From the NCBI RefSeq assembly GCF_015207655.1, contig NZ_JADEWN010000024.1, positions 1-64,000 of the forward strand: a DNA stretch of 64,000 bases. Reading direction: 5' to 3'. The translations under genes and the position numbers were made by a program. The DNA is from Gloeocapsopsis crepidinum LEGE 06123. GTDB taxonomy: Bacteria; Cyanobacteriota; Cyanobacteriia; Cyanobacteriales; Chroococcidiopsidaceae. This document shows, piece after piece, positions 10,363 to 20,091 of the stretch. The first letter of the stretch is position 1, and the number at the start of each line of letters is the position of its first letter. The notes under the pieces were generated by a model. It worked only from the letters and a program-made list of their open reading frames with translations, was not told the origin of the DNA and searched no databases.

Positions 10363-10509
10363 CAACTACAGTTGCAGCTAAACAAACAAAGTCTACCTCT
10401 GCTAAACATAGCTATTTTAGAAATAACAACGTCAGTAGGTTTAGTATTGCAGATTTTCTGCATGAATTAGATTCTGCCATCCTAATCTATATGAACTAAA
10501 CGTTTTCCA

Positions 10510-10612
10510 TATCTTCTCCCTCCTGGGAGAAACCAATGGGGGGCTGAGGTTATAAACTATTAATCCCCCCAGAATTGGGAAGCCAGTTTGTTGCGGGGGT
10601 TCTCTCTGTTGT
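10510..10612. repeat. C/G-tract hairpin in the gap after the arsA-like gene
   Basis: The 260-base gap holds a tract of six G's around 10540 complementary to a tract of six C's around 10565, with a further GGGGG near 10595. It resembles cyanobacterial intergenic repeat DNA. No gene seen. Confidence 0.4.
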
Positions 10613-10622
10613 AGGAACTGGC

Positions 10623-11222
10623 ATGGATAGAAGAAAGCTAGTTAATATTCGTGCAAGAAGTCTCGTATAATTACGGTTCCTAACTGCTCAAATCTTCTTT
10701 GAGTTAAGGCAACAATATCTTCAAAGACGTAATTTACTTTCGTCAATGGACATACGAGCTTTTCGGCTTCCTTGGTTAGCAGCAGATACTAAAGTATACG
10801 AACTCGATCAACTTGAAGTTCTCAGTTATAAAGATACTGTACTAAAAGATACATCACCTACTTGCTAAAGGTTTGCGATCGCAGCAGATCTCACTCAATC
10901 TCGATCGCACTTATTGTTAGCTCAAAGATATCGTGCTGATATACCTTCCATATGGTTAATTGAAGGCTTGTGGATCTACTTGAATTTACCTCAAGTAGAT
11001 ATACTAACAACAGTTTCAAAGCTAGCTGTAGCGAGAAGTTGGTTAGGATTAAGTGTAATCAATACCGAGGGAATAGGATCAGCCACAGACATTAGTTTTC
11101 AAGAATATTGGCGTTCCAAATTTGATATCCCAGAGAAGTTACCAGCAGACTATGGATGGAAAGCAAAGGTAATTCAACCTGGAGATGAAGGCGCACATTT
11201 TGGGCGTTATACCCACTTTTAA
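10623..11222 (+). pseudogene. Decayed class I SAM-dependent methyltransferase (TIGR00027-like)
   Basis: The sequence translates in one frame as pieces of the leucine-carboxyl-methyltransferase-like family: IRARS, MDIRAFRLPW with VYELDQLEV (SAM pocket), FAIAADLT, then SIWLIEGLWIYL, SVINTEG and VIQPGDEGAHFGRYTH. It is broken by in-frame stops at about 10668 (TAA) and at 10866-10868 (TAA where the family has a Gln codon, CAA), and the stretch before MDIRAF is scrambled. The N-terminus is missing and the C-terminus is short. A 102-residue open frame after the last stop (from TTG 10914) could still be translated but would lack the SAM-binding part. Confidence 0.75.
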
Positions 11223-11224
11223 GC

Positions 11225-12367
11225 TCAAGTTCTAATCTGCACTGGCATAATTAAATAAGTCATCTTTACACCACCTAAAGGCGTTAAAATCACTGGGCTA
11301 GTTGGGGTGTTAATCTGCATTTGAATTTCTGAAGTGGGAAGTGCTTTCAAGCCGTCAACTAAATATTTAATGTTAAAGGCAATATCAATACTATCACCTG
11401 AAATTTGTGCAGGCATTGATTCTCTACCACTACCAATATCTTGCGCATCAACCGATAAAGCTAATTCTTGGTTGGCGCTATCAAGCGTAAACTTCACAAT
11501 ATTATTTTTCTGATCTGCTAAAACCGCAATTCGTTCGATCGCACTGAGTAAAAACTTACGTTCGAGTGACACTTGAATTTCAAATTGACGGGGGATAAGT
11601 TGACGATAGGCTGGATATTGTCCTTCTAAAGTACGGCTAGTTAAACGGTGGTTTTCCCATTCAAAAACAACTTGTCCGCGATCGCAATGCAGTGACAGCA
11701 CTGCACCATCATTCAGTATCCCTAACATTCGTTCTAGTTCGCGTAAGGCTTTGGCTGGTACTGTTACCTCTAGTTGTGCTACATCTGCCTCTAAGGGTGC
11801 ATTTTCGTTGATAGTTTGCACAACTGCTAAGCGATGTCCATCAGTAGCCGCAAATTCTAAAGTCTCTTGCTCTATACTCAAATGCAGTCCTGACAAAATT
11901 TGCTTAGTTTCATCAGCACTTGTTGCAAATAAAGAACCTCGTAGTCCTTCAGTCAATGCTTCTACTGGCAAATGAATAGCTTCGCCATTTTCTATTACTG
12001 GCAATTCAGGAAATTCTTCTACCCCCATACCCCTAACTTGATACTTTCCTGAAGTGGAAGTAATCGTAGCACCTAATGGTGTCTCTCCTTCATCATCAAT
12101 GGCAAGTTCCCCTTGTGGCATTCGCGAAATAATGTCATTCAAGAGCTTAGCAGGAAGGGTTATTTCTCCTCCTGTTTCTACTACAGCCAAAAAGCTTGTC
12201 CGAATACCTAAGCTTAGATCGAACGCAGTAAGACTAACTTGTCCTGTTTGCGCATCTGCCGTCAATAGTACGTTTGCTAAAATTGGATGTGTCGGACGTG
12301 ATGGCACTGCACGGCTTACGAGCGACAAGTTTGTGCTGATATCACTTTGATTGCAAACGAATTTCAT
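11225..12367 (-). CDS. dnaN: DNA polymerase III beta subunit (sliding clamp)
   Basis: Ring-shaped processivity clamp that tethers DNA polymerase III to DNA. The 380-residue product shows the three-fold clamp repeat: MKFVCNQSDISTNLSLVSRAVPSRPTHPILANVLL at the start (given here only as a start marker), FATDGHRLAV-type segment (FAATDGHRLAVV) in domain 2, and the C-terminal tail VILTPLGGVKMTYLIMPVQI, which carries the conserved MPV/MPM-type end. ATG at 12367 fits. It is transcribed away from the DnaA-box cluster just upstream, the usual arrangement near the origin in several cyanobacteria. The decayed methyltransferase ends 2 bases from its stop. Confidence 0.96.
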   Translation of the reverse strand: MKFVCNQSDISTNLSLVSRAVPSRPTHPILANVLLTADAQTGQVSLTAFDLSLGIRTSFLAVVETGGEITLPAKLLNDIISRMPQGELAIDDEGETPLGATITSTSGKYQVRGMGVEEFPELPVIENGEAIHLPVEALTEGLRGSLFATSADETKQILSGLHLSIEQETLEFAATDGHRLAVVQTINENAPLEADVAQLEVTVPAKALRELERMLGILNDGAVLSLHCDRGQVVFEWENHRLTSRTLEGQYPAYRQLIPRQFEIQVSLERKFLLSAIERIAVLADQKNNIVKFTLDSANQELALSVDAQDIGSGRESMPAQISGDSIDIAFNIKYLVDGLKALPTSEIQMQINTPTSPVILTPLGGVKMTYLIMPVQIRT

Positions 12368-12518
12368 CAGGAGATTTGTGAGTTTGCTAAAGGGTTTGGA
12401 TGCGTCTTGAGTTTCATCTAGCTCAGAAGCACTATCGTAGCATTTGCTGCCTGTATCTGTTGCATAAAGACTACTAAAGATCTTTTTAATTTTTATATGT
12501 AGTAGTAGTAGTAGGTGC

Positions 12519-12713
12519 TGTGGAAACTGTGGAAAAACTTCAACAACCCTTTATCTAGTTCAATTTCATCTCTTATCTGCTGTGGAAAACTTGTGGAAAA
12601 GCTGAATAGTTTTTCACATAGTATTTTTACTCACTATCAGTTTTCCTCGTAAAGTAAATAGTTTTCCACAGATTTTCCCAAAGTTTTCCCCAGAAATCTG
12701 TAAGTTTTTCACA
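12519..12713. other. Putative chromosomal replication origin: DnaA-box cluster
   Basis: Four perfect copies of the cyanobacterial DnaA box TTTTCCACA or its complement occur in 150 bases: 12528-12536, 12581-12589, 12592-12600 (reverse) and 12662-12670 (forward). Further close matches are at 12519-12527 (TGTGGAAAC), 12610-12618 and 12705-12713 (TTTTTCACA), 12673-12681 (TTTTCCCAA) and 12684-12692 (TTTTCCCCA). All reverse boxes lie on the dnaN side and all forward boxes on the other side. About 370 bases of very AT-rich DNA follow (12714-13084), suitable for an unwinding element. dnaN-adjacent origins are known in Synechococcus elongatus. Function is inferred. Confidence 0.75.
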
Positions 12714-13084
12714 ATCTAATCAACTCTTAATATTTCTTTAAGCCAATATTAAGCTTGACATCCACGAAATCTTAAAGCTTGTGAAAACAACATAACTTAA
12801 TTATAAATATTTAATAAACATTAAAACACACTTATCTTTCAAACGAGATACCCAAAGAATGACTTCAGTAGGATTACTGAAGTTAAGTCTTGATATAGGT
12901 TTTTCCAAGTTGATTTTATCAGTGTGATTTCGCTTATATATGTAGTTAAATACAAGTTAAATTTCTGTTTAATATGTTTTTTACTTCTATTTTACTTATT
13001 TCTCTGGTTTAGGAATATATAAAAAATATGGCACGATTCAATTTTTAGTTTCGATTGATATTTTTATAGATCTATATTTTAAAA
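12714..13084. other. AT-rich region, candidate DNA-unwinding element and cassette leader
   Basis: No gene. Almost entirely A+T, with runs such as ttaattataaatatttaataaacatt. It separates the DnaA-box cluster from the vWA gene, so it probably holds the promoter of the 13-20 kb cassette as well as a possible unwinding element. Confidence 0.5.
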
Positions 13085-14257
13085 ATGTTCATAAACACAC
13101 TTATGTCTAATCGCATAATATTAGCCTCTGCGATAAAGACTACTCCTGGGAAAAAACTCAATCCTCACCAAAAAATAGCATTAGAAGTGGTTGCTGGTAT
13201 TCATAATAAGCGTGATGTAATATTAGCAATTGATTTAACTGAGAGTGTAGGAATTAATGACGAAGGTCGGATTCGTCTACGACAAATTATTGAAGATAGC
13301 TTGAAATCTGGAGATTCGGTATACGTTGTTCCTTTTGCATCAAATATAGTTAACTCAGAAGAAATATCAAATTTACATCCTTTAGGACTACCCATTCATT
13401 TTGATAAAAAAAATCAACAAAATATAGATAAAGTTTTACAAAAAATTCCATTGTCAGCTAATCTAAATTTCCAAAATACAGATATTCAACAAGCGGAACT
13501 TACTATCTATCAAGGGTTAGCTCAGCTTAATCAAAATCGCCTGCAACAAAATCAACCAATCAAGTTTCAATCAATAGTCTGGATTACAGACGCCCCTTTA
13601 TTAACTAAATCAGGTAACGAGTGGATTGAAACTCCAGCAGATAGTCCTTTTCGATTAGAAGATTCTCTACAAAGTCAAGTACGGCAGGCTTGGATTGATG
13701 CTTTACCTTTAAATAAAAGAGAAATATCAATTCAAACAGCTGACTCTAGAGAATATAAACTTGCTGTAGTTGATATTGAACCAGTTGTACAGGAATTTTG
13801 TACAATTGCACCAAACAATCAAGATTTTTGTAAAGTTAACTCTTATTTGTTTGGACAATTATGGTTTCCTACTATAGTTTTAATTTTAGGAATAATTTCT
13901 AGCACATTTTTTGCCAAACACTTGATCGCTCTACGTAAAAAATGGCGAGTTTCTGTTGTTGCAGACTTGGAAGATTATGAAAAAGAATGTCGCCCACTAT
14001 TACCAGGAAAATCTTTTGCTATAGGTCAAGGAGATTCTAATTGTATTGATGAAATTGATTGTCCTGGATCAGAAGTAAGAGCTTATCTAGAACGTCAAGG
14101 AAATCAACTTTATTTAGTTCCTACTCAACTAGCACCAATAGAATTGAAAGGTAGAGAAGTTAATAAAAGAACTCGATTAACGGGTAGTTCTATTAAACTG
14201 AACTGTCCAAGTGACAAGCATGGAGATTTTTATCTCAATATTAAAGTTAAAAAGTAA
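13085..14257 (+). CDS. vWA-domain membrane protein, first gene of the tubulin/ZorAB-like cassette
   Basis: 390 residues. Residues about 42-230 form a von Willebrand A domain: strand VILAID, MIDAS residues D50-x-T52-x-S54, a downstream Thr-containing helix, and a second metal-site Asp in VWITDAP. One transmembrane helix follows at about 258-280 (FPTIVLILGIISSTFFA). The last 105 residues are beta-rich (FAIGQGDSNC, RAYLERQGNQLYLVP, LTGSSIKLNC) and look like a degenerate FHA-type sandwich; that is inference. ATG 13085 is used, with an alternative ATG at 13103. The tubulin-like gene begins 20 bases after its stop, so the two are probably co-transcribed. No name is known to me. Confidence 0.75.
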   Translation: MFINTLMSNRIILASAIKTTPGKKLNPHQKIALEVVAGIHNKRDVILAIDLTESVGINDEGRIRLRQIIEDSLKSGDSVYVVPFASNIVNSEEISNLHPLGLPIHFDKKNQQNIDKVLQKIPLSANLNFQNTDIQQAELTIYQGLAQLNQNRLQQNQPIKFQSIVWITDAPLLTKSGNEWIETPADSPFRLEDSLQSQVRQAWIDALPLNKREISIQTADSREYKLAVVDIEPVVQEFCTIAPNNQDFCKVNSYLFGQLWFPTIVLILGIISSTFFAKHLIALRKKWRVSVVADLEDYEKECRPLLPGKSFAIGQGDSNCIDEIDCPGSEVRAYLERQGNQLYLVPTQLAPIELKGREVNKRTRLTGSSIKLNCPSDKHGDFYLNIKVKK

Positions 14258-14277
14258 TTTATAAATTAAAGCTGATT

Positions 14278-15960
14278 ATGTATACTCAAACTTCTATGAA
14301 CGACCGACAATATCAAGGAATTAACCGAACTATTTGTATTGGTTTAGGTAGTACTGGTAAAGAGGTTTTGATGCGTGTTCGTAGGTTAATAGTAGATCGC
14401 TATCAAGATTTAGCTAAATTACCAGTAGTTAGTTTTGTACATATTGATACCGACAAAGAAGCTACACAATCGGTTAGCTTGCGGACAGGAAATAGCTATC
14501 AAGGTGTTGATTTAAGTTTTCAAGATGCTGAAAAAATCAATGCTACAATGACTTCTGCGCAAATTACTGAATTAGTTCAAGGTTTAGAACACTGTAATCC
14601 TATTGGCGATCAACCTAGTCCCTATGCTCATATTTCTGAGTGGTTTCCACCACAACTGTTGAGGAATATTAAAGCAATTGACCAAGGTGCAAAAGGTATT
14701 AGACCTATTGGTAGACTATCATTTTTTCATAACTATTTAAAAATTAAGCAGGCTATCGAAGTTGCTGAACAACGTACAAGAGGACACGAGCAAGATTTAC
14801 TAAAGCAATCTGGTTTAATTGTTGATCCTGGATTAAATATTATTGTTGTCGGTTCGTTGTGTGGTGGTACGGGTAGCGGTACTTTTTTAGATATGGCATA
14901 TAGCTTAAGGTATGCTTACCCTGAAGTTAAACAACTTGTTGGATATTTAGTAATTAGTCCAGAATTGTATGGCAATACACCTAATATGTGTGCCAATACT
15001 TATGCAGCATTAATGGAACTTGACTACTATTCAAGCCCTGGAACAACTTTTGCAGCTTGTTATGACCAAAGATATGATATTCATGTTCAGGAGAAACGCC
15101 CTCCATTTGATTACACCTACTTAGTTTCTAAATCAACAGAACAAGGTAATTATGTTATTGATAAGCAGCGAAAACTGTGTAACGTTATTGCTAATAAAAT
15201 TGCTCTTGACTTTTCGAGTGAATTAGCACCTGTTGTCAAGGGAATGCGTGATAATTTTGCCCAACATTTGATTCAAGAAGACGATCATCCACGCCCGAAT
15301 ACTCAAAACTATCTTACTTTTGGGTTAGCGGCAATTTATTTTCCACGCGATCGCATCTCTCAAATCACAGTCACGCGAATTAGTCACAAGCTAACTAACT
15401 TTTGGTTGCAAGGCGAAGGGCAAAGCCCAGACCCACTAAAATTGTTAGAACAGTTTTTCATTGAACATCATTGGTATAATAACTCAGATCAAAAAAATGG
15501 TTTTATTTCTAAGTTAGAAGAAATACCAATTGAAAATGAAAAAAACTTCAATGCTTTGATGAACACATGGAAATCGAAGCTAGAAAATAAAATTACTGAG
15601 TGTAAAACTAAAGAAGAGCGTGCTAGCTTGATGCGGCAACTTCAAAGAGACTTTCGCGAACAGTTTCATAAAACTAAAACTGGAGATTCAGAAAGTACTC
15701 GCGGAGTTTGGTTGACTAAAATTATTAAAGGGAAAAATAGCTTATTTACACAGCTTTGTGAAGATATTGATAGCTATTTATATAGTCTACTTAATCCTAA
15801 TAATAAGAACTTCTCAATTACAAATAGTCGTAATTGGCTTGATGCTATTCAATCTGAATTAAACACATATCAATATGAGATTGAATTAAAAGTTAAAGAT
15901 GTTAACAGCACTAAATCATTAGAGCAACTAGAAAAAAATGGACACAAATTAACAAGATAA
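14278..15960 (+). CDS. Tubulin-like GTPase (Tubulin_2 type), N-terminal part, frame interrupted
   Basis: The first 560 residues of what is probably a roughly 1,090-residue protein. The tubulin/FtsZ nucleotide fold is visible: a T1-like glycine loop in CIGLGSTGKEVL (about residue 20), VSFVHIDTD (T2/T3 region), and the tubulin signature G196-G197-T198-G199-S200-G201 after strand NIIVVGS. After residue 400 the protein becomes helical and charged. The frame ends at a TAA at 15958-15960, but the adjacent frame continues with similar helical coding sequence, the switch point being a run of seven A at 15932-15938. The neighbours are a vWA protein and MotA/MotB-like genes. GTP binding is inferred from motifs. 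Confidence 0.8.
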   Translation: MYTQTSMNDRQYQGINRTICIGLGSTGKEVLMRVRRLIVDRYQDLAKLPVVSFVHIDTDKEATQSVSLRTGNSYQGVDLSFQDAEKINATMTSAQITELVQGLEHCNPIGDQPSPYAHISEWFPPQLLRNIKAIDQGAKGIRPIGRLSFFHNYLKIKQAIEVAEQRTRGHEQDLLKQSGLIVDPGLNIIVVGSLCGGTGSGTFLDMAYSLRYAYPEVKQLVGYLVISPELYGNTPNMCANTYAALMELDYYSSPGTTFAACYDQRYDIHVQEKRPPFDYTYLVSKSTEQGNYVIDKQRKLCNVIANKIALDFSSELAPVVKGMRDNFAQHLIQEDDHPRPNTQNYLTFGLAAIYFPRDRISQITVTRISHKLTNFWLQGEGQSPDPLKLLEQFFIEHHWYNNSDQKNGFISKLEEIPIENEKNFNALMNTWKSKLENKITECKTKEERASLMRQLQRDFREQFHKTKTGDSESTRGVWLTKIIKGKNSLFTQLCEDIDSYLYSLLNPNNKNFSITNSRNWLDAIQSELNTYQYEIELKVKDVNSTKSLEQLEKNGHKLTR

Positions 15961-17549
15961 TTCAAGATATTGAAGAAGAATTTAAAATTCTTTTCAATAA
16001 TAAAAATAGCCGCGTACAAGAAGAAGCAAGAAGAGCTATTAAAGATACAGAAACAGCAATTAAACAAAATTTTAATCTATCGGTTGCTTTAGAAGCTTTA
16101 GAAGTTGTCAAATTCCTACAACACTACGTACAGTTAAGAGCTAATCAATTAACTTCACTAAGTCGCTCAGTAGAAGAATTAAAAGTTTGCTACGAAAAAG
16201 ATCAAGTTGAACTGAAACAATCTAATTCTGATGAGATGAGTGGTGAAGAAATATTTTCTGAAGAAGATATAGAAGCTTGTTATGAAGCTTTGCTTCCCCA
16301 AAGAGAGTATCGTGCGCAAGCTATTCAAATTACTCAAAAAGTTTTAGCATCTGTAGGTGAAGGACAGTCTTTAGCTATTCTTCTTGCTCAAAGTTATCTT
16401 AATAAAGATCAACTCAAACGTGAAATTGATCCGACAGTTAATCAATTATTTGGTTCGCGGAGTGCAGATACTGTAGAATCAGTGATTAAGCGCTTCAATC
16501 AAAAATATCCCACTTTATCAGAACGTCCAGTTCGACTAGGGCAAATTATCCGCGAAGCTCAACCACTACTACCTCTTAATCTCACCGCGTCCTACTTTCA
16601 CAATAGTTCTGCCAAGAAGAGTCAACTTATTGGTTTCAAAGATAGTGATGAGCCAGATGTTCAGCAATTCCATGAAATTTTAACAAATAAATTGGCAATT
16701 TCTGACAACGAACTTAAGTCAACTCAGAATGAAGACAAAGTTTTACTTGTTACCGAATATGCTGCTTTTCCACTTAGGTTGATTGATGGTTTAGAGAAGC
16801 TGAAGAACCATTATGTCAGGCTAAAAAATCAACCAGGTAATGCTCCATTACACAATCATCGAAGTGAAAGCTTTACTGACATTATTCCACCACCGGTTAA
16901 CGAAATACTAGATTTACAAGACGTTTTCTATCCTTGTCTAGCACTAAATTTAATTCAAACTAATCCAGTAACTCAGCAACTCGAATTTCAATACTTTGAT
17001 GAGTTACGTGGAGAGTACTACTTTGCTTCTCTCGATCCGGCTTGGAAAAAAGCTTTACAAGAGTTGATCGATCATAAAAGTAAAGCCAAAGCACTGCAAG
17101 ACTTACTTGATGGAGTCATGCAAGAAATCGAGCAACAACCTAGACAATGGCAAGAATACTATTTACCAAAACTTCGTCAGTTTGTACAACAAGTAGATAG
17201 TTTGCCAGATAGTGATGAAAATTATCCTTATCGCTTAAATGTCGTTGGCTCACGCGGAGGTGATTCTGCTACAGCGAAAGAAGGTGTTGTTAACCGCTTC
17301 CAAGCACGAATGCAGCAGAAATTTATGGATAAGATATCTAGCAAGAATGGTAATGGAAACAAACCTAATCCTCAAATCTTGACGGGTGAAGTTATGTTGC
17401 TTGAACCTTCTGTTGAAATTGAAGATAACAGAACACGACGTCGTTTAGAAATAGAGCGTTTAAAGCAAGATCTTGCTGATGGTATTTTAAATCAAGAAGA
17501 GTACGAACAAGAGCGTCAACAAATTATTGCTAAGTATCCTTTGGGCTAG
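15939..17549 (+). CDS. Tubulin-like protein, C-terminal part continuing in the -1 frame
   Basis: The frame that overlaps the end of the tubulin-like gene is open from before 15939 and reads coherent coiled, charged protein (KWTQINKIIQDIEEEF...) through to 17549; its first ATG is only at 16236. Coding quality is continuous across 15939-16236, so this is the rest of the upstream protein, separated by a one-base shift at A7, rather than an independent gene. Near the C-terminus, RLEIERLKQDLADGILNQEE resembles the SHOCT helix pair common at ends of membrane-associated or oligomeric proteins. Either the gene is a pseudogene, an assembly indel, or a programmed -1 frameshift site (A AAA AAT). Confidence 0.7.
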   Translation, partial: WTQINKIIQDIEEEFKILFNNKNSRVQEEARRAIKDTETAIKQNFNLSVALEALEVVKFLQHYVQLRANQLTSLSRSVEELKVCYEKDQVELKQSNSDEMSGEEIFSEEDIEACYEALLPQREYRAQAIQITQKVLASVGEGQSLAILLAQSYLNKDQLKREIDPTVNQLFGSRSADTVESVIKRFNQKYPTLSERPVRLGQIIREAQPLLPLNLTASYFHNSSAKKSQLIGFKDSDEPDVQQFHEILTNKLAISDNELKSTQNEDKVLLVTEYAAFPLRLIDGLEKLKNHYVRLKNQPGNAPLHNHRSESFTDIIPPPVNEILDLQDVFYPCLALNLIQTNPVTQQLEFQYFDELRGEYYFASLDPAWKKALQELIDHKSKAKALQDLLDGVMQEIEQQPRQWQEYYLPKLRQFVQQVDSLPDSDENYPYRLNVVGSRGGDSATAKEGVVNRFQARMQQKFMDKISSKNGNGNKPNPQILTGEVMLLEPSVEIEDNRTRRRLEIERLKQDLADGILNQEEYEQERQQIIAKYPLG

Positions 17550-17596
17550 TAATGAAGTGGGTGTTATAGCGATCCTAATTTGAGTTGTAATTTTGG

Positions 17597-17700
17597 GTTA
17601 ACGAACCACTTCAGACGCAGAGGAGGACACTTGCGTGCGGTGGTTTCCCCCGTTGAACAAGGTGTCCGTGAACACAGGGAGAAGAATAAAGGGAGGTATT
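17597..17700. repeat. Intergenic repeat with nested hairpin, copy 1
   Basis: Begins gttaacgaaccacttcagac and ends gggagaagaataaa. Between them lies a hairpin with arms ggacacttg and caaggtgtcc (about 17625-17666). The outer part is repeated in inverted orientation at 19341-19393 and in direct orientation at 21135-21190. It is of a widespread cyanobacterial intergenic type. Confidence 0.75.
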
Positions 17701-17771
17701 CACAAATGAATTAGGGTTACTGTGTAATTTATTGATTTTTTATAAATGTTTGACTTTTATACTTGACTTAT

Positions 17772-19289
17772 ATGCAAAGTTTTATATCTACTTTACCTCC
17801 TGTACTATTATTAAGTATAGTTTTGATTATAGTATTACCTTCTTTTGCTACTGTTTTTTTGCGTTTAACTCTTTATGACAAACTTGTTTTTTTAGAAAGT
17901 CGTGTGAGAAGACTGATTAATCGCGAGCCAAGAGGAGATCAACCTGAAATTATTAGAGAATTGGAATTACGGTTTAAAGAAGCTAGTTCAAACCTCGATC
18001 AAGTTAATACAGCAGCCTTAATTGATCAAGTTTATAGTCAACAAAAAATTGGTTTATTTTCTTACGATCAAATTGAATACTTTTGCCGAGTTTTACCCAA
18101 TTTACTGTTAGCATTTGGCTTGCTCGGTACTTTTTTAGGCATTACACTAAACTTGAGTCAACTGAGCCAAACAATAACTAGTGTTACACAAAGCAGTAAT
18201 AATATTGAAAGTTTGTTAAATGACATACAGCAACCTTTGCAAGCAATGAGTGTTGCTTTTGCTACTAGTTTAACTGGAATACTTTTTAGTGCTTTAATAA
18301 TAGCATTTAATTTAATCAAGAACACAAGTATAGCTAAGTACAAATTAGTTATTTCAATTGAAGATTACTTAGATAATATTTATCAGCCTGAGATTCAAGG
18401 AAATCATCGATTAGATCAAGCGGTAGATCGTTTAGTCTTTGAATTTAAAGAATTTTTAGGTAGATTTGGTACAACAGTACGCGATGCGGTAAACTCTTCT
18501 CTTGGAGCTAAAATTCAAGAAATTGTGGATGTTAATAAACAGGCTAACGAACTTGCTTGTCGTGTTTACAGTGGATTTCAAGAATCATCTGGAACTCTGG
18601 CAAAAAGTGTTGATGATTTTCAAACAACTACAATCAAATTTGCAGAAACAGCACAGGTATTTGAGCAGAGTAATTTTGCTCAACTTCTTGCTGATGCTAC
18701 AAAAGATTTATACAGTATCCAAAAAAACTTTAATCATTCAACTGAAGTTTTATCTAAATCAGTGGCAACAATTGAATCAGCAGTATTTGAAGTAGTAAAT
18801 TCTAATCATAAAGTACAAAATGTAGCTGATCAGATTAATCATCACAATCAAAATACAGTTCAAGCTTTAGAACTACATTGGAGTAATCAGCAATCTTTAA
18901 ATGAAATCATACCGCAATTATATCAAGGCAGTGGAAAGCTCCAATCTGCTGTAGAAACGCTTGATAAAATTCAGCAGAAGAACCTAGATAAAGCAGATAG
19001 TTTTGAACGTGTAGAGAATGAACTAAAAACCTTAGCTGAATCTCTTAATAAATATAATCAAGTAGTAGCAGTTCGTTTGAAGAACTTAAGCGATCGCCTA
19101 ATTAAAAGCATCAGCGATCAATCAAACAATCAACAACAACAAATGCAAGTTGTCTTAGAGAACTTAGCTCACTGTACGAAACATCTCAGCGATACAAAAC
19201 ACGAGAACTACCGTCTAAATAAGCTTTTAGAAAAACAGCTTTTATCAAACAAAAACTATAGTAACCGTCCTCCTATAACCGTTAAATAA
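17772..19289 (+). CDS. MotA/TolQ/ExbB-family protein with long C-terminal tail (ZorA-like)
   Basis: 505 residues from ATG 17772 (an in-frame TTG is 9 bases upstream). Three transmembrane segments are predicted: 9-30, 109-128 (LLLAFGLLGTFLGITL) and 159-182 (MSVAFATSLTGILFSALI). The two latter carry the Gly/Thr-rich pattern of the proton-channel helices of MotA, TolQ and ExbB. Residues 190-505 form a long cytoplasmic, Gln/Asn-rich, coiled-coil-like tail. That architecture matches ZorA of Zorya defence more than flagellar MotA. The ZorB-like partner is the next gene on the strand. Inverted repeat copies lie on both sides. Function in an ion-driven motor is inferred. Confidence 0.75.
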   Translation: MQSFISTLPPVLLLSIVLIIVLPSFATVFLRLTLYDKLVFLESRVRRLINREPRGDQPEIIRELELRFKEASSNLDQVNTAALIDQVYSQQKIGLFSYDQIEYFCRVLPNLLLAFGLLGTFLGITLNLSQLSQTITSVTQSSNNIESLLNDIQQPLQAMSVAFATSLTGILFSALIIAFNLIKNTSIAKYKLVISIEDYLDNIYQPEIQGNHRLDQAVDRLVFEFKEFLGRFGTTVRDAVNSSLGAKIQEIVDVNKQANELACRVYSGFQESSGTLAKSVDDFQTTTIKFAETAQVFEQSNFAQLLADATKDLYSIQKNFNHSTEVLSKSVATIESAVFEVVNSNHKVQNVADQINHHNQNTVQALELHWSNQQSLNEIIPQLYQGSGKLQSAVETLDKIQQKNLDKADSFERVENELKTLAESLNKYNQVVAVRLKNLSDRLIKSISDQSNNQQQQMQVVLENLAHCTKHLSDTKHENYRLNKLLEKQLLSNKNYSNRPPITVK

Positions 19290-19340
19290 AATTATTTTTT
19301 ATATACTATAGCAATCTTAAATCATTCGTGAGAATTTCTC

Positions 19341-19393
19341 TTAATTCTTCTCTCTGCGTTCACGGATACTTGCATCTGGAGTGGTTCGTTAAC
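19341..19393. repeat. Intergenic repeat, copy 2 (inverted relative to copy 1)
   Basis: Reverse complement reads GTTAACGAACCACTCCAGAT..., then TCCGTGAACGCAGAGAGAAGAA, matching the outer parts of the copy at 17597-17700. The two copies flank the ZorA-like gene head to head. Confidence 0.75.
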
Positions 19394-19419
19394 AAATAGT
19401 TGAACACTATATAATTAAT

Positions 19420-20091
19420 ATGCGGTATTCTAATAAACATAATCAAATACACGAAGAACTGAATATTTGGTCTGCTTTTACAGACTTGATGTCTAATACT
19501 TTTATGATAGCTATGTTGTTTTTGCTAGTAGCTATTATAAAAAGCGTAAATACCCAAACACACTTAAGCCAAGCGATTGAAACTCAAAAACAAAATGCAC
19601 CTCCACCTATTCTAGTCATTGAAGATAAAGGAGCGTATCGTTTTGCTTCAGGTAGCGCAGAAATTCCGGCAATCATGGATCAATACATCAGAAATAAAAT
19701 TGTTCCTCAAATTGAACAACACACGCAGCAGTATAAAATTAATGTAGTAGAAATTATTGGTCATACTGATGGTCAAGGAAATGGAAGTGTTACTAGCAAT
19801 CTTGACCAAAACTTAGAAAAAGTAGCAAATGCAACTATACCTGTCAATCAACTAAAAGCAGGTTCTAACGCTGACTTAGGGTTGATGCGGGCACTTGCGG
19901 TTGTCCAAGTACTACGTAACATCCAAAAGACGAGTAACCGATTACAAGGCTTGAACTTTAGAGCTTATTCAGCAGCGCAATTAATCTTACCAGATGGTAA
20001 TTTTGCAACTGTTAATCGTAATCCTGATGCTACCAGGCGACGCATTGAAGTTCGCTTTACTCGACCTGGTGCGCCCATAAAAGTTGAATAA
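19420..20091 (+). CDS. MotB/OmpA-like peptidoglycan-binding protein (ZorB-like)
   Basis: 223 residues. A short cytoplasmic N-terminus leads into one transmembrane helix at about 22-42 that begins with Asp22 (AFTDLMSNTF), the position of the proton-carrying Asp in MotB and ZorB. Residues 60-220 form an OmpA/MotB C-like domain: RFASGSAEIP, VVEIIGHTDGQG, LGLMRALAVVQVL, FRAYSA and DATRRRIEVRF, the peptidoglycan-binding pattern. With the ZorA-like protein it should form a stator-type ion channel anchored to the cell wall. It is the last gene of the cassette; the convergent MIF-like gene ends 2 bases away. Confidence 0.8.
   Translation: MRYSNKHNQIHEELNIWSAFTDLMSNTFMIAMLFLLVAIIKSVNTQTHLSQAIETQKQNAPPPILVIEDKGAYRFASGSAEIPAIMDQYIRNKIVPQIEQHTQQYKINVVEIIGHTDGQGNGSVTSNLDQNLEKVANATIPVNQLKAGSNADLGLMRALAVVQVLRNIQKTSNRLQGLNFRAYSAAQLILPDGNFATVNRNPDATRRRIEVRFTRPGAPIKVE

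What the first reader, a model, noticed from the sequence alone, without database searches (positions are those of the whole stretch)
13085..20091. vWA / tubulin-like GTPase / ZorA-like / ZorB-like cassette beside the putative origin
Seen: four consecutive same-strand genes encode a vWA protein with one membrane helix, a protein with the tubulin signature GGTGSG (residues 196-201), a MotA/TolQ-type protein with three membrane helices and a 300-residue tail, and a MotB/OmpA-type partner with the channel Asp22. Established: ZorA/ZorB of Zorya have exactly this tail and Asp arrangement; classical effectors ZorC, ZorD, ZorE are not here. Inference: an ion-driven envelope motor coupled to a tubulin-family polymer and a vWA adaptor, possibly a defence or envelope-sensing system. 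The DNA is AT-rich with only two HIP1 sites found (15347, 19090), unlike its neighbours. I do not know of a named system with this gene set.
Basis: partly seen in the sequence, partly recalled or inferred. Interest (0 to 1): 0.87.

Follow-up and report, generated by a model that had tools for sequence, protein, structure and literature searches.

The report
Ion motor paired with tubulin-like protein
Many cyanobacteria carry a mobile four-gene unit that joins a relative of tubulin, the protein of cell skeletons, to an ion-driven membrane motor like the one in the Zorya anti-virus system; part of it was described in 2010, but the motor part seems unreported, and in this genome the tubulin gene is broken by one missing base.

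Summary
A vWA gene, a Tubulin_2 (FtsZl1) gene, a ZorA-like MotA gene and a MotB/OmpA gene follow one another on the + strand at 13085-20091. Two corrections: the tubulin gene is one ~1090-aa gene split by a one-base frameshift near 15931 into ORFs 14278-15960 and 16236-17549, while the nearest relative is intact; and the vWA protein ends in an FHA-like domain. The linkage is real: 52 of the 80 best MotB relatives in named genomes have the same four genes in the same order, and across 19 loci no other gene is shared by more than three. The motor groups with ZorA, not TolQ/ExbB, but outside the ZorA clade, and falls far below curated ZorA cut-offs; no Zorya effector is linked. It is not Zorya. 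FtsZl1+vWA+OmpA operons were predicted as membrane-remodelling machines in 2010 (PMC2875224); no searchable paper mentions a MotA-type channel with them. Deinococcus plasmids show a tubulin+MotA+OmpA link that looks independently assembled, which argues for functional coupling. The cassette is patchy and often broken. Best reading: an accessory, peptidoglycan-anchored ion motor coupled to a tubulin-family polymer, probably envelope surveillance or conflict. Defence is plausible but unproven.

The parts
13085..14257 (+). Membrane vWA-FHA protein, 390 aa: vWA fold ~37-230, one membrane helix ~255-280, FHA-like domain ~285-390
   Evidence: Pfam has no hit
14278..15960 (+). N-terminal part of the tubulin-like GTPase (FtsZl1 / Tubulin_2), GGTGSG at residues 196-201; ends early because of a frameshift near 15931
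   Evidence: PF13809 E=4.4e-101; frameshift shown against relatives
15915..17549 (+). C-terminal part of the same tubulin-like protein in the other frame (open from 15915; ATG ORF 16236-17549, 437 aa)
   Evidence: dN/dS 0.13 against G215, still purifying
17763..19289 (+). ZorA-like MotA subunit: three membrane helices and ~310-aa coiled-coil-rich tail; likely start ATG 17772
   Evidence: PADLOC ZorA1 partial E=5.6e-17, NCBIfam ZorA below cut-off, hydrophobicity, trees
19420..20091 (+). MotB/ZorB-like partner: one membrane helix with Asp22, then an OmpA-like peptidoglycan-binding domain with invariant H115, D117, R157, R207, R208
12368..13084 (.). Intergenic stretch between dnaN (11225-12367, -) and the cassette, with DnaA-box-like sites at 12528-12705; context, not part of the system

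Best explanation
A discrete, mobile four-gene unit that builds an accessory envelope machine. Inferred architecture: five MotA-like and two MotB-like subunits form a ZorAB/MotAB-type ion channel in the inner membrane; MotB Asp22 carries ions and its OmpA-like domain grips peptidoglycan; the long MotA tail projects into the cytoplasm. The tubulin-like GTPase (tubulin domain, long helical middle, helical C-terminal domain) assembles in the cytoplasm at or through the motor tail. The vWA-TM-FHA protein is the membrane adaptor: its metal-site vWA domain and phosphopeptide-type FHA domain on opposite sides of the membrane relay a signal or tether the polymer. Motion or gating of the motor on an envelope cue (wall damage, phage entry, turgor) would control the polymer, or the polymer would position the motor. 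Most likely role: envelope surveillance with a conflict-type output, working like Zorya but with a tubulin polymer in place of DNA-degrading effectors. Shown: gene content, order, conservation, motifs, folds, tree position. Inferred: 5:2 assembly, coupling, trigger, defence role.
For: Linkage: 14 of 18 further loci of this tubulin clade in the genome set carry all four genes in the same order, and 16 of 18 have MotA-MotB directly downstream of the tubulin. The reverse test from MotB alone gives 52 complete cassettes among the 80 best loci. Apart from the cassette, no gene is shared by more than three of the 19 loci, so the unit is these four genes. The four proteins' distance matrices correlate at r 0.68-0.89 over 48 cassettes. 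Motor tubulins form one clade (0.985-0.99). Asp22 and the peptidoglycan residues match ones required in Zorya, where ion flow, tail and wall binding are all needed (PMC11890865). Convergence: Deinococcus plasmids carry Tubulin_2 + MotA-like + OmpA genes together, with tubulin and motor on other branches than the cyanobacterial ones. Accessory nature: patchy, at least seven broken copies, faster evolution than neighbours.
Against: No experiment on any member was found. Defence context is weak: PADLOC hits near the cassettes (restriction enzymes, a DRT reverse transcriptase, helicases) were not clearly in excess of controls, and counts per protein could not be had. The home cassette sits among housekeeping genes and has stayed beside dnaN across at least two genera. 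The MotA/MotB pair also exists alone in about 22 of 80 loci, so the motor does not need the tubulin. The tubulin model is poor (pTM 0.42), and the 2010 paper could not find the T6-H7 elements, so polymerisation is not established. vWA topology is uncertain: positive charges put the FHA side inside, but there is no signal peptide to export the vWA domain.
Confidence: 0.5

Rival explanations
1. Membrane-remodelling or envelope-maintenance machine unrelated to phages, as predicted in 2010 for FtsZl1 operons: the tubulin polymer shapes or positions membrane, the motor and OmpA-like protein transmit force to the wall.
For: Same core gene types (PMC2875224); envelope anatomy; stable residence beside dnaN in the window's family with purifying selection, dN/dS 0.10-0.22; standalone motors of the same family exist.
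Against: Patchy presence and at least seven independent-looking losses or breaks imply it is dispensable; flanks differ between families as in a mobile unit; cassette genes evolve faster than neighbours.
Confidence: 0.33
2. It is a divergent Zorya system.
For: MotA-like protein joins ZorA in trees; PADLOC ZorA/ZorB partial hits; long tail, Asp and wall-binding residues.
Against: 37.9 and 32 bits against ZorA cut-offs of 100 and 190; outside the ZorA clade; no ZorC, ZorD or ZorE in a unit that has no fifth conserved gene; no ZorA above cut-off in 208 cyanobacterial genomes.
Confidence: 0.07
3. TolQR/ExbBD-type energiser with a vWA force transducer, as described in 2025 for vWA proteins next to TolQ-like motors.
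For: vWA next to a 5:2-type motor gene (PMC12204202).
Against: No PF01618 match while the genome's own ExbBs score E about 1e-32; partner has an OmpA domain absent from TolR/ExbD; tree places it away from TolQ/ExbB; the vWA helix has no Asp.
Confidence: 0.05
4. In this strain the cassette is a decaying remnant; the frameshift means no function here. (A statement about this copy, compatible with any of the above for the family.)
For: One-base deletion in the tubulin gene; same-genus G214 and family member G229 have lost most of the cassette; repeat-like sequence sits in both spacers.
Against: Both halves of the tubulin gene still look constrained (dN/dS 0.10 and 0.13); the seven-A run could be a sequencing error in a 150-contig draft or be bypassed by slippage.
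Confidence: 0.4

Closest known systems
FtsZl1 (Tubulin_2) operons, Makarova and Koonin 2010 (PMC2875224)
   Same: Tubulin-like domain + coiled coil + helical C-terminal domain; linked vWA gene; linked OmpA-family gene; cyanobacteria included in the family alignment
   Different: No MotA/ExbB/TolQ term in the main text; common P-loop GTPase and kinase partners absent here; OmpA gene not identified there as a motor subunit. The supplements listing families A1-A2 and B1-B9 could not be read
Zorya ZorA/ZorB motor (PMC11890865)
   Same: ZorA-like channel subunit with long tail; ZorB-like partner with channel Asp and wall-binding residues; nearest motor clade
   Different: Scores under curated cut-offs; separate clade; tubulin-like and vWA-FHA proteins instead of ZorC/D/E
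GTPase-centred conflict systems with tubulin and vWA (PMC7159879)
   Same: Tubulin with coiled-coil or helical tail plus membrane vWA proteins, read as conflict systems
   Different: Those centre on GAP1-type GTPases in Firmicutes and Actinobacteria; no GTPase of that kind found here and no motor reported there
Motor-linked vWA force transducers (PMC12204202)
   Same: vWA membrane protein linked to an ion-driven 5:2-type motor
   Different: TolQ-like motors, no tubulin; vWA there either has the SHLS motif or carries the channel Asp itself
Thermales vWA-Tubulin_2-X-BrxL clusters and Deinococcus Tubulin_2-MotA-OmpA clusters (L242, L244, L247; L245, L262, L263)
   Same: FtsZl1 gene after a vWA gene (Thermales) or with motor pair (Deinococcus)
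   Different: Thermales: BrxL and a ~680-aa protein instead of the motor, in island-like surroundings. Deinococcus: GGTCSG loop, extra small membrane protein and repeat proteins; vWA not confirmed

Membership tests
FtsZl1 / Tubulin_2 | Tubulin_2 domain with GTP-loop GGTGSG | tested here: met
   E=4.4e-101, 339 bits against cut-off 27; loop invariant in 38 aligned relatives
FtsZl1 / Tubulin_2 | Coiled-coil middle and helical C-terminal domain | tested here: met
   Relatives 1032-1108 aa; model is helical from ~357 on with a 73-residue helix at 578-650
FtsZl1 / Tubulin_2 | Linked vWA gene (usual, not obligatory) | tested here: met
FtsZl1 / Tubulin_2 | Linked P-loop GTPase or Ser/Thr kinase (frequent, not obligatory) | tested here: not met
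   No fifth conserved gene; no such Pfam hit in the cassette
Zorya | ZorA above curated score | tested here: not met
   37.9 of 100 bits (NF033915), 32 of 190 bits (NF033914)
Zorya | MotA-type channel subunit with long cytoplasmic tail | tested here: met
   PADLOC ZorA1 partial E=5.6e-17
Zorya | ZorB-like partner: channel Asp and peptidoglycan-binding residues | tested here: met
   D22, D117, R157, R207 and R208 invariant and shared with ZorB
Zorya | Motor nested in the ZorA clade | tested here: not met
   ZorA references 99.9/100 apart from cassette clade 96.5/98; joined at 94.2/98; four reference ZorAs only
Zorya | Effectors ZorC and ZorD, or ZorE | tested here: not met
   No further gene conserved beside the cassette; neighbours of the window copy are ordinary genes
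Zorya | Protects against phages | not testable with these tools
   needs a plaque assay
TolQR/ExbBD | PF01618 match and partner without OmpA domain | tested here: not met
GAP1-tubulin conflict systems | GAP1-type GTPase in the operon | tested here: not met
   No GTPase other than the tubulin-like one in the cassette; no GAP1 profile was run as such
vWA force transducers | SHLS motif or channel Asp in the vWA membrane helix | tested here: not met
   Helix LWFPTIVLILGIISSTFFA has neither

The most novel reading that the evidence does not exclude
A new class of envelope immunity: an ion-driven, wall-anchored motor that senses phage entry or envelope damage and switches a tubulin-family polymer through a vWA-FHA adaptor, the tubulin polymer being the effector, and assembled at least twice independently (cyanobacteria and Deinococcus). 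It would be, as far as I know, the first case of an ion-motive-force motor acting directly on a tubulin-superfamily filament.
Probability: 0.22. Interest if true: 0.93.

Novelty: new variant of a known kind. Interest (0 to 1): 0.66.

Why it matters
FtsZl1 proteins are a widespread branch of the tubulin superfamily whose job has stayed open since 2010. Recognising that one branch travels with a ZorAB-type ion motor and a vWA-FHA membrane adaptor gives a concrete, four-gene, testable machine: point mutants in the channel Asp, the wall-binding arginines, the GTP loop and the vWA metal site each have a clear prediction. The Deinococcus case suggests that the coupling arose more than once. If motor and polymer do interact, this would link proton- or sodium-motive force to a tubulin-type filament, for which I know of no precedent.

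Tried and rejected
Zorya membership: rejected on curated scores, clade and effectors. TolQ/ExbB origin: rejected. Four intact genes: rejected, tubulin gene frameshifted. Conserved frameshift (programmed slippage as a family trait): rejected, relatives are in frame; slippage in this strain alone remains possible. Link to the replication origin: rejected as general, only the window's family has it. Defence-island enrichment: tried with 140 flank ORFs against 140 ORFs from regions mostly 200-300 kb away, PADLOC at 1e-15; 93 against 38 families, but families overlap and per-protein counts are not given, so inconclusive. Phage or plasmid carriage of this clade: only distant FtsZl1 relatives found. 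Finding Zorya II in E. coli ATCC 8739 by guessing coordinates: two regions held none. Tubulin model: low confidence, best Foldseek matches are CetZ and tubulins at E 2.5e-3 only. vWA identity of the Deinococcus upstream protein: hhalign not significant. Papers on tubulin with BrxL, Zorya or MotA: none describes this set.
Full report
What is there. The window is contig C50 of a 5.67 Mb draft of 150 contigs. Five ORFs lie in a row on the + strand at 13085-20091. The second and third belong to one gene. The 560-aa ORF 14278-15960 is Tubulin_2 (E=4.4e-101). Its frame ends soon after the run CTAGAAAAAAATGGACA, and the next frame is open from 15915 to 17549. Intact relatives read ...LE(R/K)KW... or its counterpart through this point in one ORF of 1032-1108 aa. 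The same-genus relative G215 has GAAAAAAAGTGG and an intact 1090-aa gene, with 90-91% amino-acid identity on both sides of the break. The window gene has thus lost one base. dN/dS against G215 is 0.10 before and 0.13 after the break, so the loss is recent, an error of sequencing, or bypassed.

The other three proteins. Pfam finds nothing in the first. Its model (pLDDT 82) shows a vWA fold at residues ~37-230 (Z 9.6-9.7 to alpha-2/delta and inter-alpha-inhibitor vWA domains) and an FHA fold at 285-390 (Z up to 11.0 to Rad53 FHA1; Foldseek E=1.5e-4), joined by a long helix with a clear membrane stretch. Positive charges follow the helix (mean 4.8 K/R after, 1.3 before, 52 proteins), which would put the FHA domain inside, but no signal peptide is visible to export the vWA domain; the topology is open. 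The MotA-like protein has helices at 14-32, 107-125 and 164-182 and a ~310-residue tail. The MotB-like protein has one helix carrying Asp22 and an OmpA-like domain. Asp22, His115, Asp117, Arg157, Arg207 and Arg208 are invariant in 54 cassette and 24 stand-alone homologues; all but His115 are shared with three ZorBs. In Zorya, mutating the channel Asp, the tail or the wall-binding residues abolishes defence (PMC11890865).

Is the set real? Among 214 cyanobacterial genomes, 62 have a Tubulin_2 match. Of 18 further loci of the window's tubulin clade, 16 have MotA-MotB directly downstream and 14 have all four genes in order; no other gene is shared by more than three of the 19 loci. Other FtsZl1 clades in the same genomes lack the pair, also by profile search, apart from one weak MotA-profile hit in L086. 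Starting from MotB alone, the named-genome collection gave 335 relatives; among the best 80, 52 are complete vWA-Tub-MotA-MotB cassettes and 3 more keep Tub-MotA-MotB. Twenty-two are MotA-MotB pairs without a tubulin match (one of them, L118, starts at a contig edge). The distances of the four proteins correlate (r 0.68-0.89 over 48 cassettes). The motor-linked tubulins form one clade (0.985-0.99).

Whose motor is it? PF01618 does not match it, while the genome's own ExbB proteins score ~1e-31 to 1e-35. In an IQ-TREE analysis of 54 sequences the cassette and stand-alone proteins form a clade (96.5/98), join four reference ZorAs (94.2/98) and stand apart from TolQ/ExbB (92/99) (FastTree agrees). 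They are not inside the ZorA clade and score 37.9 and 32 bits against cut-offs of 100 and 190. Rooting rests on one E. coli MotA, so branch order among deep groups is provisional.

An independent case. Plasmids of Deinococcus sp. QL22, D. deserti and D. radiophilus carry Tubulin_2, a MotA-like protein (annotated MotA/TolQ/ExbB in QL22) and an OmpA-family protein; in D. radiophilus an insertion sequence and a further ORF separate the tubulin gene from the pair. Their tubulins fall outside the cyanobacterial tubulins and their motors outside the ZorA + cyanobacterial group, which is what independent assembly would give. The GTP loop there reads GGTCSG. Three Thermales plasmids have vWA-Tubulin_2-unknown-BrxL among helicase, WYL, Swt1-HEPN or DUF1156 genes, which looks like a defence island, without the motor.

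History of this copy. The cassette sits beside dnaN in G215, G217 and G225 as well, so it has been there since before these genera split. In G214, whose DnaN is 98% identical, vWA, tubulin and much of MotA are gone; in G229 a deletion joins vWA, a tubulin scrap and MotB; G227 keeps vWA and scraps at another site; G219 has an indel inside the GTP loop; L048 and L053 carry insertions. With the window, that is 7 of 28 loci examined. Cassette proteins diverge faster than neighbours (81-91% against 93-98% identity). Low GC and few HIP1 sites fit an acquired module or relaxed composition.

Known or new. Makarova and Koonin (PMC2875224) described FtsZl1 with vWA and, in several genomes, OmpA-family genes, and predicted membrane remodelling; MotA, ExbB and TolQ do not occur in the main text. 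The supplements could not be read. Kaur and co-workers (PMC7159879) treat GTPase-tubulin-vWA operons as conflict systems; no motor is mentioned. The 2025 study of vWA force transducers (PMC12204202) has motor-vWA pairs without tubulin. I found no paper that joins the three. Preprints outside PMC and most subscription journals were not searchable.

Mechanism and doubt. The anatomy fits a wall-anchored ion motor whose tail meets a cytoplasmic tubulin-family polymer, with the vWA-FHA protein as adaptor. Gene linkage, co-inheritance and the Deinococcus case support coupling; no physical interaction was tested. The choice between surveillance/defence and remodelling rests on indirect signs (patchiness, decay, closeness to ZorAB, Thermales islands), and the flank test with PADLOC did not settle it. 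I give about 0.5 to the surveillance/conflict machine, 0.33 to remodelling.

Noticed in passing
window 17590-17730 and 19300-19400: Both spacers of the operon hold related, inverted repeat-like sequence (shared GTTAACGAACCAC end, found only at these two places in the genome; one 82% copy on C58). The G215 spacers are much shorter and lack them.
   Followed up: partly
window 10380-11222: Between the ArsA-like gene and dnaN lies what looks like a broken gene (ORF 10914-11222, 102 aa; stops upstream). G217 has a 271-aa ORF at the same place (L228:2505-3317).
   Followed up: partly
L108, L129, L134, L139, L144, L151, L159, L161 and others: A family of stand-alone MotA-MotB pairs related to the cassette motor, without a tubulin or vWA match, in many cyanobacteria; function unknown to me.
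   Followed up: partly
L242, L244, L247 (Thermales plasmids): vWA - Tubulin_2 - ~680-aa unknown protein - BrxL clusters next to helicases, WYL, Swt1-HEPN or DUF1156 genes: a possible separate tubulin-linked defence locus.
   Followed up: partly
L065, L066, L086, L088: Another FtsZl1 clade (~2.5 Mb genomes) sits beside a conserved set of genes that looks chemotaxis-like by eye (receiver-like 125 aa, ~165 aa, 519 aa, ~870 aa).
   Followed up: no
L057, L058, L059: A third FtsZl1 type with conserved neighbours of ~610 aa upstream and ~920-1050 aa downstream, no motor; its tubulin groups with the Thermales BrxL type (0.99).
   Followed up: no
L173 (G021): A 730-aa ZorA-like protein that groups weakly with ZorA references; best NF033914 hit covering the channel region among 208 cyanobacterial genomes, still under the cut-off.
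   Followed up: no
L246 (Azospirillum plasmid): A Tubulin_2 gene with two caspase-family genes and several OmpA-family genes nearby.
   Followed up: no
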